Below, in pieces: positions 442-37,495 of a stretch of DNA of 44,238 nt. How positions within the stretch are numbered: the first letter of the stretch is position 1; every line of letters begins with the position of its first letter. Source of the DNA: an uncultured Roseburia sp. (GTDB lineage: Bacteria; Bacillota_A; Clostridia; Lachnospirales; Lachnospiraceae); assembly GCA_900753715.1 (NCBI GenBank), contig CAAEAE010000157.1:1-44238 (forward strand). Reading direction: 5' to 3'. Under the pieces are notes generated by a model. The model made no database searches, was not told the origin of the DNA, and saw only the letters and a list, made by a program, of their open reading frames with translations. A program made the position numbers and the translations under genes.

Positions 442-496
442 TTGTAAATACCGGACAGATATGCTAATATGGTAAAAGTTTCATAGAGAAGATAAT

Positions 497-690
497 TGGT
501 GCCGGCTGTATCCGCGTGCGGATGCAAAGCCGGTTAAAAGGGAAACAGGTGCGATTCCTGTACGATCTCGTCACTGTGATTAGGGAGTGCAGATTCTATA
601 GAGATGTCACTGATGCCCAGAGCGGTATTGGGAAGGCGGAATCTGTGTGATGATCTTTCAGCCAGGAAACCTGCCAGTTGTCTGGTACAG
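497..690 (+). promoter_or_regulatory. Cobalamin (adenosylcobalamin) riboswitch
   Basis: The conserved elements appear in order: GGTGCCG near 498, AAAAGGGAA near 536, GGTGCGATTCCTGT, the CGTCACTGTGATTAGGGAG core, CACTGATGCCC with GGGAAGG, and the B12 box GCCAGGAAACCTGCCA at 661-676. The aptamer precedes an intrinsic terminator and the cbiK/ABC importer operon. Bound cobalamin is therefore expected to switch that operon off. Confidence 0.93.
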
Positions 691-777
691 GGAAATAAAT
701 TTCCCAGATCACGAGTAATTGGTCGTACTGTTATAGGAAGCTGTCTTGCTGTCAGCTTGTTTTTCGTAGACTTATTA

Positions 778-35063: not shown

Positions 35064-36848
35064 ATGGGAAATGAAGCAATCGGAACAATGCTCGGGATGC
35101 TGCGGGCGAAGAAAGGGTATCCGAGAGGAAAACTTTGCAGAGGTCTGTGCACTTCCCAGATGTTGATAAAAATTGAAAAAGGAACCTGTGAAGTGGATAA
35201 GTTCCTGCTCGATATGCTGTTACAGCGGCTTGGAAAATCACCGGATAAACTCGAAATGATTCTTTCCGAGGATGAATATAAACGTGTCAGGCTAATTGAT
35301 GAGATAGAGGAAAGCATCTGGAAGGGTGAGCGGGAGAAGGCACTGTCACTTCTTGCGGAATACGAAGCAGGTTTTGTAAAAGAGACCAATGTGCAAAAAA
35401 TGTTTAAACTGCGCACGAGAGCGTATATCAGCAGGCGCATTGACAGGGACATGAAAGCGGCAGAGACGTATCTTTTGCAGGCGGTACAGCTGACGCTGCC
35501 GGGAATCAATACCGAAAATATGATGAATTATACGATTGCCGGAAACGAGATGGAGAACCTCTTGGCACTCGGGTTGTGTATGTTTGAGCAGGGAAAGCAA
35601 GAGCAGGCGGAGAAACATCTTTTTGCCTGCAAACAGTATCTGGATGCAAATGTGACAGATGAAGAGGCATATGCAAAGCTGTTTGGAAAATGTGCGTGGC
35701 TGATAGCGAAGCTCTATGCGAAGAAAGGTGAATATACGCGGGCATATTTAATCTGTGAGGAGGCATTCGTAAAACTTCGCAGATGTGGAATCTTATATTT
35801 TATGCTGCCATTGTTAGAACAGCTCATTACGTGTGGCGCAAAAATGGGCATAGACGGGGAAAAGAGCAAGTGGAACATTTACCATGAAATTTTAACGGAA
35901 CTGTATCAGGATTACGGAAGACCGTGGGAGTGTAAGGACTCGCTGTTTCACAACTGTAACCGGATGACCTGCCATCTCGACAGCGAATTTATCAGGCAGG
36001 AGCGGATTGCGCAGAATCTGACACAGGAACAGCTTATCGAAGGCGTTTACCAGTCGCCGGAAACACTCTCCCGTGTGGAACGGGGCAAGGAATCCCCTGT
36101 AAAACGTAAATTTGAGGGCCTGATGGAAAATCTTGGTGTGGAGCGCGGAAAATACTGCGGGACTGCAATTGTAGAAGACTACGAGACGCTGGAATTAAAG
36201 TGGCAGGTGGAAAACTGTATCGGAAGAGGCGATTATACTGCGGCGGAGGCAATGCTGCAAAAACTGAAGGAAAACGTAAATCTGCAATGGAAAATGAACC
36301 AGATGATGACGGCAAATTATCAGGACGCCATTTTGCATGGTTTAAAGAAGAAAAGCGCAGAAGAACTGTTGGCACATGAAAAAGAGCTTCTTCTATTAAG
36401 TTACCGGGCAGGGGGCGAAGGCATAAGAGTGCCGCTTCGGAACGAGTTAATGGTACAAAACCAGATAGGCACGCTGCTTCGTGAACTGGGCAGAGTAGAA
36501 GAGGCGGATGCACTGTACCGCCAGATTATCGGAACAGTAGAAAACAGCCGGATGGACAAGCACTACCGGTATCAGATTTACTGTCTGCCGAACATCAATC
36601 TGGCAATCAACACGGAGGATGAGAGGCTGGTGTCTGGGGGCATACGGTATGAACTCCTCTGCGGAAACGGGACATTGCTGCCATCTTATCTTCATATTCT
36701 TGCACATATAGAACGGAAAACAGAGGCAGCAAAGGAACCTGTCCGTATCATGCAGGCATACTACCTCTGTGAATTATTCTTCCGTGAAAGTTACCAAACT
36801 CTTCTAAAAGATTACTACCAGAAGCATTTTGGCGGAAATTTGCCCTAA
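35064..36848 (+). CDS. Duplicated HTH-TPR transcriptional regulator (RRNPP-like)
   Basis: The 594-residue product appears to be a tandem repeat of an XRE-type helix-turn-helix followed by TPR-like helices. The first HTH (about 5-65: IGTMLGMLRAKKGYPRGKL, MLIKIEKGTCEVDKFLLDML) is degenerate. The second (about 310-365: FIRQERIAQNLTQEQLIEGV, PETLSRVERGKESP) is a clear XRE domain. Helical repeats fill 80-300 and 375-590 (EQGKQEQAEKHLFACKQYL, LLRELGRVEEADALYRQII). HTH plus TPR is the layout of RRNPP peptide-sensing regulators. A convergent 45-residue secreted peptide gene shares its stop codon region, which supports that reading. The RBS is weak and tadA lies 12 bases upstream. Confidence 0.75.
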   Translation: MGNEAIGTMLGMLRAKKGYPRGKLCRGLCTSQMLIKIEKGTCEVDKFLLDMLLQRLGKSPDKLEMILSEDEYKRVRLIDEIEESIWKGEREKALSLLAEYEAGFVKETNVQKMFKLRTRAYISRRIDRDMKAAETYLLQAVQLTLPGINTENMMNYTIAGNEMENLLALGLCMFEQGKQEQAEKHLFACKQYLDANVTDEEAYAKLFGKCAWLIAKLYAKKGEYTRAYLICEEAFVKLRRCGILYFMLPLLEQLITCGAKMGIDGEKSKWNIYHEILTELYQDYGRPWECKDSLFHNCNRMTCHLDSEFIRQERIAQNLTQEQLIEGVYQSPETLSRVERGKESPVKRKFEGLMENLGVERGKYCGTAIVEDYETLELKWQVENCIGRGDYTAAEAMLQKLKENVNLQWKMNQMMTANYQDAILHGLKKKSAEELLAHEKELLLLSYRAGGEGIRVPLRNELMVQNQIGTLLRELGRVEEADALYRQIIGTVENSRMDKHYRYQIYCLPNINLAINTEDERLVSGGIRYELLCGNGTLLPSYLHILAHIERKTEAAKEPVRIMQAYYLCELFFRESYQTLLKDYYQKHFGGNLP

Positions 36849-36982
36849 ATCTGTGTAATGACAGAAGGAATGACATCATCCTCATGAGCGACGGAGATAC
36901 TGTTGTCAGCAATACCTGCACAGTTTGCGGTAAGAAATACAGCCAAAAGAGTCAGTAAAAGAACAGATTTTAATTTTTTCAT
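36845..36982 (-). CDS. Small secreted peptide, candidate signal for the convergent HTH-TPR regulator
   Basis: The - strand ORF has 45 codons. It starts MKKLKSVLLLTLLAVFLTA, a textbook Sec signal peptide with a plausible cleavage after GIA (residue 25). A 20-residue acidic tail with the pieces SVAHEDD and VIPSVITQI remains. GAGG lies eight bases before ATG. Its TAG (36847-36845) overlaps the TAA (36846-36848) of the HTH-TPR regulator gene by two bases. Phr/PapR/NprX-type pro-peptides are of this size and are encoded beside their receptors, although usually on the same strand. No lipobox is formed because Asn precedes the Cys. Function is inferred. Confidence 0.65.
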   Translation of the reverse strand: MKKLKSVLLLTLLAVFLTANCAGIADNSISVAHEDDVIPSVITQI

Positions 36983-37011
36983 GTGAAATACCTCGCTTCA
37001 TTTTTGACATC

Positions 37012-37040
37012 AATATAGGGTCAGAAGCGGGAAAGAAACA
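37012..37040 (-). promoter_or_regulatory. Possible promoter of the small secreted peptide gene
   Basis: On the - strand a TATATT (37017-37012) would start transcription about 22 bases before the peptide ribosome site and ATG. The region 17 bases upstream (TGTTTC) is a poor -35, so an activator may be needed. No clear operator palindrome is seen. Confidence 0.3.
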
Positions 37041-37147
37041 GGATTTTGCGGTTATCATTTTGTCCGGGTGATTGTAACTGAAAAGTCATGTTCTTTTTGG
37101 CAGAGGAAACGTAAAATAAAAATGGATTCATAATAAGTAGAAGATAT

Positions 37148-37190
37148 AGAGGGAGGTCTGGCGTAGTCTTATGCCAGCCCTCTCTTTTTT
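37148..37190 (+). terminator. Intrinsic terminator upstream of the SRP RNA gene
   Basis: AGAGGG plus CTGGC pair with GCCAG plus CCCTCT around TAGTCTTA and run into TTTTTT. It is the first + strand terminator after the HTH-TPR regulator. The regulator transcript would therefore run antisense through the whole secreted peptide gene before ending here. Confidence 0.8.
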
Positions 37191-37228: not shown

Positions 37229-37495
37229 CCGAGCAGCCGGGGTGGTAGCGGTACCCTAATCCAGCAATCCGCTATAGCTGGGGTGATGCCAAACAGAGGA
37301 TTTCGGGTGGTGGAGCCGCCCTTCGTAAGTGGCGTTGAAGTTTGGGTCTTGCGCAACAGGAATCTATGAACCGGGTCAGGTCAGGAATGGAGCAGCCCTA
37401 AGTAGAAACTCCTGTGTGCCGCAAGGGTGCCTGGGCTGAGTTAACTGCGGAGGTAACGTCTGTTATCCGGATTCGACGGGCGGCGCTCGGTTTTT
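37229..37495 (+). ncRNA. ffs: Signal recognition particle RNA, large Firmicutes type (scRNA)
   Basis: CCGAGC at the 5' end pairs with GCTCGG at the 3' end (37485-37490), followed by a T run that acts as the terminator. The Alu domain has GGTGGTAGCGGTACCCT and GCAATCCGCTATAGC. The S domain has the Ffh-binding core TGAACCGGGTCAGGTCAGGAA and GGAGCAGC, then GTGCCGCAAGGGTGCCTGGG. GAGTTAACTGCGGAGGTAACG near the 3' side also matches the Bacillus-type scRNA. It works with Ffh in co-translational targeting of membrane proteins. Confidence 0.93.

What the first reader, a model, noticed from the sequence alone, without database searches (positions are those of the whole stretch)
36845..37190. Secreted micro-peptide gene converging with shared stop codons on a TPR regulator
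The - strand encodes 45 residues with a Sec signal peptide and a short acidic tail. Its stop overlaps the stop of a large HTH-TPR regulator by two bases. HTH-TPR proteins of the RRNPP group bind re-imported peptides from such small exported precursors. The tail-to-tail layout is unlike the usual same-strand Rap-Phr or PlcR-PapR order. The first + strand terminator lies beyond the peptide gene, so the regulator mRNA would be antisense to it. That adds a second possible layer of control.
Basis: partly seen in the sequence, partly recalled or inferred. Interest (0 to 1): 0.78.

Follow-up and report, generated by a model that had tools for sequence, protein, structure and literature searches.

The report
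Tandem PlcR-like regulator facing peptide gene
A bacterium of the Lachnospiraceae kind carries a double-headed regulator that resembles a known bacterial pheromone receptor, with a tiny secreted-peptide gene facing it; many related regulators keep the same arrangement and some a shared DNA control site, so this looks like an undescribed layout of bacterial chemical communication, not yet tested at the bench.

Summary
A 45-aa ORF with a Sec-like signal and a Shine-Dalgarno (36845-36982, -) faces a 594-aa regulator (35064-36848, +), overlapping it by 4 nt. This is not chance: 24 of 34 related regulators in a first set and 6 of 18 in a more distant second set have such a convergent ORF within 25 nt of their stop, against 2 of 182 control genes.

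(1) The regulator is a tandem duplicate, HTH-TPR-HTH-TPR; PlcR, a pheromone receptor, is its best match by profile (C half) and by fold. (2) Peptide tails vary fast around a weak core. (3) 15 of 61 regulators (0 of 182 controls) are followed by a two-armed site with divergent promoters, AAANGTCATG-N21-TATAAT. The window has it at 37039-37090, with a degenerate peptide-side arm.

Best reading: an autoregulated RRNPP-like peptide-signalling circuit with a single-chain double receptor. Secretion, peptide binding, DNA binding and the antisense layer are untested. New variant of a known kind; RRNPP_detector's default receptor length (250-500 aa, PMC10075063) would exclude it.

The parts
35064..36848 (+). 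594-aa tandem regulator, HTH-TPR-HTH-TPR
   Evidence: ORF; Pfam HTH_3 at residues 310-359 and TPR hits; N half and C half homologous, hhalign probability 99.4, E 3.5e-21 over 225 columns; AlphaFold2 model pLDDT 92.7, pTM 0.92
35064..35267 (+). N-terminal HTH module (residues 1-68)
   Evidence: no Pfam hit in the window protein itself; aligned to the C-terminal HTH by hhalign; four helices in the model
35268..35963 (+). N-terminal TPR module (residues 69-300); Leu167 where the C half has Asn466
35964..36167 (+). C-terminal HTH module (residues 301-368)
   Evidence: Pfam HTH_3 1e-7
36168..36845 (+). C-terminal TPR module (residues 369-594), inferred peptide-binding module
   Evidence: aligned to PlcR in the PDB profile search; Asn466 in 33 of 36 rows of A1; least conserved of the four modules among 21 close relatives
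36845..36848 (.). 4-nt tail-to-tail overlap of the two ORFs
   Evidence: the same -3 register in 17 of 35 peptide genes
36845..36982 (-). 45-aa signal-peptide ORF, putative pheromone precursor
   Evidence: one 98% identical database protein, P0059
36990..36994 (-). Shine-Dalgarno GAGGT of the peptide gene
37012..37017 (-). -10 element TATATT of the peptide promoter, 21 nt from the inward arm, 29 nt from the ATG
37039..37048 (-). inward operator arm CAAAATCCTG (degenerate)
   Evidence: score 11 of 15 with its -10; 28 of 1000 shuffles reach it
37081..37090 (+). outward operator arm AAAAGTCATG
   Evidence: with its -10 scores 14 of 15, the only position of 44 kb, both strands, at 14 or more; joint two-arm score 25 reached by 0 of 1000 shuffles
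37112..37117 (+). -10 element TAAAAT of the outward promoter, 21 nt from the arm
37148..37187 (+). terminator hairpin between the outward promoter and the SRP RNA gene

Best explanation
The locus is an autoregulated peptide-signalling circuit of RRNPP type. The small ORF makes a precursor that is exported by Sec; the tail is processed outside, re-enters the cell (in known systems by an oligopeptide importer) and binds the C-terminal TPR of the tandem regulator. The regulator, which carries two HTH-TPR modules in one chain in place of the homodimer of PlcR, binds a site of about 19 bp (variable inner half, conserved AAANGTCATG outer half) lying 21 nt upstream of the -10 of the peptide promoter, i.e. 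at the -35, and so controls the peptide gene. A second, inverted copy of the site controls a divergent outward promoter; in relatives this faces ABC-transporter, EAL-domain or secreted-protein genes, in the window only a short stretch that ends at a terminator. Shown by computation: ORF pair, its recurrence, tandem architecture, PlcR-like fold, conserved site and spacing. Inferred: export, processing, import, binding, sign of regulation.
Against: Peptide absent by the +-25 nt rule in 10 of 34 and 12 of 18; of these 22, three of the first set (L071 -70, L083 +176, L085 +118) and one of the second (L104 -41) have one further off. Congeneric relatives L141, L142, L143 have neither peptide nor operator, L144 only a distant candidate. 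Tail-receptor covariation is weak (Mantel r 0.20, p 0.001; signal part r 0.13, p 0.035). pN/pS 0.56-0.79. In a wider alignment of 49 regulators the Asn466 column is Asn in 23 only (alignment is poor there). The window's inward arm is degenerate. The one-armed pattern alone is no rarer than its reversed control genome-wide: 22 places vs 18 in 14 genomes. The motif was defined on the same loci it is counted in. The outward promoter of the window has no gene before a terminator. The fold match has large rmsd over a whole module (10.7 over 262 residues) and eukaryotic TPR proteins score nearly as high. The window's own genome is not held, so an importer and paralogues could not be sought.
Confidence: 0.72

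Rival explanations
1. The peptide is an ordinary secreted or membrane micropeptide (for example a toxin-like or immunity-type effector) whose gene the regulator controls, but it is not the regulator's ligand.
For: Operator-like site at the peptide promoter needs only regulation, not binding. Some peptide-less relatives are followed by ABC transporter (L087, L094) or radical-SAM (L099) genes, so the family may sense something else and control export or peptide-maturation genes.
Against: Tails vary fast while signal, frame, position and operator stay, and the PlcR-like receptor with a conserved Asn in the C TPR fits a peptide ligand.
Confidence: 0.17
2. Type I toxin-antitoxin-like arrangement: a small hydrophobic peptide silenced by antisense RNA from the regulator transcript.
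For: No terminator between the two genes and overlapping ends; 45-aa peptide with one hydrophobic stretch.
Against: The partner is a long, conserved HTH-TPR protein gene; long polar tails of 20-60 residues beyond the hydrophobic part with a shared core; a DNA-site with fixed spacing at the peptide promoter. Known type I toxins were not searched for by family model beyond Pfam and NCBIfam, which gave no hit above cut-off.
Confidence: 0.04
3. The inverted repeat is a bidirectional transcription terminator, not an operator.
For: In several relatives the arms form stems of 20 pairs or more with T-rich flanks.
Against: Arms keep a sequence consensus (AAANGTCATG) and a fixed 21-nt distance to a -10 on both sides, the two-armed pattern is nearly confined to these regulators in the genomes searched, and in G290 single arms with the same 19 letters lie before two other genes. 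In the window the terminator is a separate hairpin.
Confidence: 0.06

Closest known systems
PlcR-PapR (Bacillus cereus group), RRNPP family
   Same: HTH plus TPR receptor fold, small adjacent gene for a signal-peptide-bearing precursor, a site at the controlled promoter.
   Different: Receptor is a fused tandem of two HTH-TPR modules; peptide gene is convergent and overlapping, not same-strand downstream (PlcR-PapR order recalled); the site AAANGTCATG-N21-TATAAT is not the palindromic PlcR box (recalled).
Rap-Phr, NprR-NprX, AimR-AimP and other RRNPP pairs
   Same: Two-gene receptor plus Sec-type propeptide module; fast-changing signal; conserved TPR Asn (PMC3601957, passages).
   Different: Known receptors are 285-473 aa with at most one HTH (PMC10075063 section 15; PMC12700828 section 7); here 594 aa with two HTH.
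Clostridial RRNPP systems Qsr and QssR (named in PMC10075063)
   Same: Clostridia; HTH-TPR regulator plus small secreted peptide.
   Different: Single-module receptors within the 250-500 aa range by that paper's account; no direct sequence comparison was made here.

Membership tests
RRNPP/RRNPPA receptor-propeptide pairs | receptor with HTH and TPR domains | tested here: met
RRNPP/RRNPPA receptor-propeptide pairs | one optional N-terminal HTH on a 5- or 9-TPR core (PMC12700828 section 7), validated length 285-473 aa (PMC10075063 section 15) | tested here: not met
   594 aa, two HTH-TPR modules in tandem; each half alone resembles the single-module form
RRNPP/RRNPPA receptor-propeptide pairs | adjacent 10-100 aa propeptide gene with Shine-Dalgarno, within -60 to 400 bp | tested here: met
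   45 aa, overlap 4 nt, GAGGT; recurrent in relatives
RRNPP/RRNPPA receptor-propeptide pairs | Sec/SPI signal by SignalP | tested here: inconclusive
   only a hydrophobicity and charge rule was run; SignalP not available
RRNPP/RRNPPA receptor-propeptide pairs | conserved TPR Asn that anchors the peptide backbone (PMC3601957) | tested here: met
   Asn466 in 33 of 36 close rows, aligned to PlcR Asn159; 23 of 49 in a wider, poorer alignment. That PlcR Asn159 is the named Asn is recalled
RRNPP/RRNPPA receptor-propeptide pairs | receptor binds the re-imported mature peptide | not testable with these tools
   needs binding experiments; own genome not held for an importer search
PlcR-PapR subfamily | single HTH plus five TPR receptor, peptide gene downstream on the same strand | tested here: not met
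   tandem receptor, convergent peptide gene
Type I toxin-antitoxin | small hydrophobic toxin gene with a dedicated antisense RNA | tested here: inconclusive
   no terminator between the genes, but no antisense RNA data; no family hit for the peptide above a curated cut-off

The most novel reading that the evidence does not exclude
A large, undescribed branch of RRNPP-like signalling in Lachnospiraceae, in which a covalent pseudo-dimer receptor divides the work: the C-terminal TPR reads a hypervariable peptide, and the two HTHs of one chain read a single asymmetric site of about 19 bp whose inner half gives each paralogous system its own address. Several such private channels can sit in one genome (in G175 at least seven regulators or regulator pairs with a convergent peptide gene: L011, L031, L042, L057, L070, L073 and L071), each driving its own peptide gene and a divergent target.
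Probability: 0.45. Interest if true: 0.88.

Novelty: new variant of a known kind. Interest (0 to 1): 0.77.

Why it matters
Peptide quorum sensing by cytoplasmic receptors is known mainly from Bacilli and a few Clostridium species. My searches of the held paper library found no paper with both RRNPP and Lachnospiraceae, none with RRNPP and 'two HTH domains', none with Lachnospiraceae, pheromone and tetratricopeptide and none with RRNPPA and tandem duplication; the library lacks most subscription journals. A receptor with both DNA-binding heads in one chain, a defined candidate operator and a mapped -10 gives a directly testable handle on communication among Lachnospiraceae, and shows why a length-limited screen would pass the family by.

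Tried and rejected
Peptide homologues by sequence: only the 98% copy. A first reading of the inverted repeat as a bidirectional terminator was dropped after the 21-nt spacing and the divergent promoters appeared. The Gibbs sampler placed the window's core at IADNSISV, not at ISVAHEDD as I would by eye. The unlinked one-armed match in G049 (L135) and seven others away from the operators include the background expected from the reversed control (22 vs 18), so I do not claim a genome-wide regulon; only the two linked sites in G290 (L122, L129) share the 19 letters of the local operator arms. In one search eight of 201 'control' genes scored as operators; they were pieces of family regulators in loci fetched because of the site, and after removal by profile search it was 0 of 182.

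Rows dropped or odd in the counts: L006 (partial regulator) was left out of the tail, stop-offset and upstream sets; L002 (contig ends 153 nt after the stop) was out of the 34; the 34 include L073, which is the C gene of a two-gene pair called full by profile coverage, and the shortened L059 and L079 as misses; the 18 include L108's N gene as a miss. L001/L039 (one TGA inside), L044-type and L059 reading-frame breaks were left as they are. Genome searches scored only the top three candidates per genome, so 11 of 397 and 24 of 397 genomes are lower bounds.

Full report
Observation. The ORF pair is as described: a 45-aa - strand ORF (36845-36982) with a signal-peptide-like start and a GAGGT Shine-Dalgarno, facing a 594-aa + strand regulator (35064-36848) and sharing two bases of stop codon with it, four nt of ORF overlap. 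The first + strand terminator-like hairpin is beyond the peptide gene at 37158-37177, followed by the SRP RNA gene at 37229-37490. Upstream, 12 nt before the regulator, ends a deaminase gene of the tadA kind.

Relatives. One scan of genome contigs gave 11 loci, those with family or genus names all Lachnospiraceae, Velocimicrobium or Anaerocolumna. In 397 genomes of that family the protein query hit 11 at E <= 1e-40 and the A1 profile 24 at E <= 1e-50, both lower bounds since three candidates per genome were scored. Several genomes hold more than one: G175 gave 17 profile matches, some of them pieces of one gene.

The peptide gene recurs. With a fixed rule (opposite strand, 30-90 aa, Shine-Dalgarno of 4 or more, hydrophobic stretch, stop within 25 nt of the regulator stop), 24 of 34 full-length regulators with at least 330 nt of downstream sequence have one, 13 in the exact -3 register; 0 of 132 other genes of the same loci and 3 of 1360 shuffles do (Fisher p 2.4e-21), and only 3 of 34 have such an ORF downstream on the same strand and 2 of 34 upstream. 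Of the ten misses one has a peptide at -70, two at +118 and +176, one (L004) an ORF at -3 with a Shine-Dalgarno but no hydrophobic signal, two are shortened regulators and four have nothing. A second, more distant set gathered afterwards gave 6 of 18, plus one at -41; controls there 3 of 41, one of which is the tail of a broken family member. The enlarged control is 2 of 182. Over all 35 peptide genes the -3 register occurs 17 times. Three loci have the N and C modules as two adjacent genes and still the convergent peptide (L070, L073, L076). On a tree of 49 regulators, peptide-bearing and peptide-less members are interleaved. Peptide-less ones include loci followed by ABC transporter or radical-SAM genes.

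The peptides. In 32 tails a Gibbs sampler finds a shared 8-residue motif of the type I/V-S/T-T/V-C with LLR 237.7 against 207.9 +- 4.1 (maximum 218.3) in 20 shuffles. Yet tails change fast: two paralogues of G041 with receptors 78% identical have tails with little in common. Their receptors agree 0.85-0.86 in HTH-N, TPR-N and HTH-C but 0.67 in TPR-C; TPR-C is also the least conserved module among 21 close relatives (0.417), though in two of nine compared pairs another module was lower. Tail similarity tracks receptor similarity weakly (Mantel r 0.20, p 0.001; signal part r 0.13, p 0.035). Three congeneric orthologues (receptors 66-76% identical) keep start, signal, Shine-Dalgarno and place, with pN/pS of 0.56-0.79 and pS near saturation: frame kept, residues loosely.

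The binding module. Asn466 is Asn in 33 of 36 rows and aligns with PlcR Asn159; the equivalent of the N half, Leu167, is Leu in 35 of 36. [quoted passage not shown] In a looser alignment of 49 regulators the column is Asn in 23 only. I infer that the C-terminal TPR is the peptide-binding one and the N-terminal TPR has another role.

The operator. Upstream of many peptide genes is an inverted repeat whose arms read AAANGTCATG outward. Scoring AAANGTCATG-spacer-TATAAT over 33 loci other than the window, spacer 21 stands out: 13 loci at 12 or more of 15, at most 8 at any other spacer from 12 to 30. Each arm has its own -10 on its own side, so the repeat lies between divergent promoters: inward to the peptide, outward to a next gene. 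The two-armed form occurs after 15 of 61 regulators (13 of 34 with a peptide, 2 of 27 without), in 1 of 1220 shuffles and in 0 of 182 controls. Strong one-arm sites (14 or more) number 14 in 26,447 bp behind regulator stops and 1 in 417,109 bp elsewhere, that one being upstream of regulator L087 itself. The inner ten letters agree 7.8 of 10 between the arms of one locus and 4.2 between loci, as expected if each paralogue reads its own version. The consensus was drawn from these same loci, so the counts describe rather than predict; the shuffles, controls, genome-wide pattern (7 places in 11 genomes, 6 beside family regulators) and the three congeneric orthologues are the safeguards. One arm alone is not specific genome-wide (22 places vs 18 for the reversed control).

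The window's own operator: outward arm 37081-37090 with TAAAAT at 37112-37117 (14 of 15, the only such position in 44 kb); inward arm 37048-37039 (-) with TATATT at 37017-37012 (11 of 15; 28 of 1000 shuffles reach this alone). The two-armed score of 25 is reached by 0 of 1000 shuffles, and the arms agree in 13 of 19 letters (binomial p 6e-4 at 0.3). The peptide start is 29 nt after the inward -10. The outward promoter runs into the terminator after about 60 nt, with no plausible gene; whether it makes a short RNA or is a relic is open.

Targets. In relatives the outward promoter faces EAL-domain genes (L008, L108 by Pfam; L009 by likeness), ABC transporter genes (L089, L094) or secreted proteins without family (L041). 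In G290 the 19 letters of the operator arms recur before two nearby genes, one an RHS-repeat protein with a signal-like start (L129), one without family (L122).

Known or new. PMC10075063 (sections 7, 15 and 17 read) defines RRNPP pairs by receptors of 250-500 aa; PMC12700828 (section 7 read) describes at most one N-terminal HTH. Both exclude a 594-aa tandem receptor by definition, so strict membership is not met, while the working resemblance is strong. Paper searches for the combination found nothing; searches returned lists in which I saw titles and abstract starts only, apart from the three papers named. I file it as a new variant of a known kind.

Doubts. Nothing here shows secretion, peptide binding, DNA binding or the sign of control. 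The antisense layer remains a possibility from layout alone. A third or more of relatives lack the peptide. The own genome was not available.

Noticed in passing
37124-37190 (+): The outward promoter at the operator would yield a short RNA of about 65 nt ending in a strong terminator just before the SRP RNA gene; function unknown.
   Followed up: partly
37229-37490 (+): Bacterial large SRP RNA gene (Rfam RF01854, 183.6 bits), between the peptide locus and a PsiE-like membrane protein gene.
   Followed up: no
480-692 (+): Cobalamin riboswitch (Rfam RF00174, 101.3 bits) ahead of a 551-aa ORF with a lipoprotein-like start.
   Followed up: no
L087 near 4803: A strong copy of the one-arm site with its -10 lies upstream of a family regulator itself, followed by an ABC transporter gene and no peptide ORF.
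   Followed up: partly
L070, L073, L076: The two HTH-TPR modules occur as two separate adjacent genes with the convergent peptide gene, which may be the unfused form of the tandem receptor.
   Followed up: partly
L099 and L004: Radical-SAM genes lie downstream of peptide-less or signal-less family regulators (Pfam-confirmed for L099; by likeness for L004).
   Followed up: partly
P0059 vs window 36845-36982: The one database copy of the peptide differs by a single A14D change in the hydrophobic stretch.
   Followed up: no
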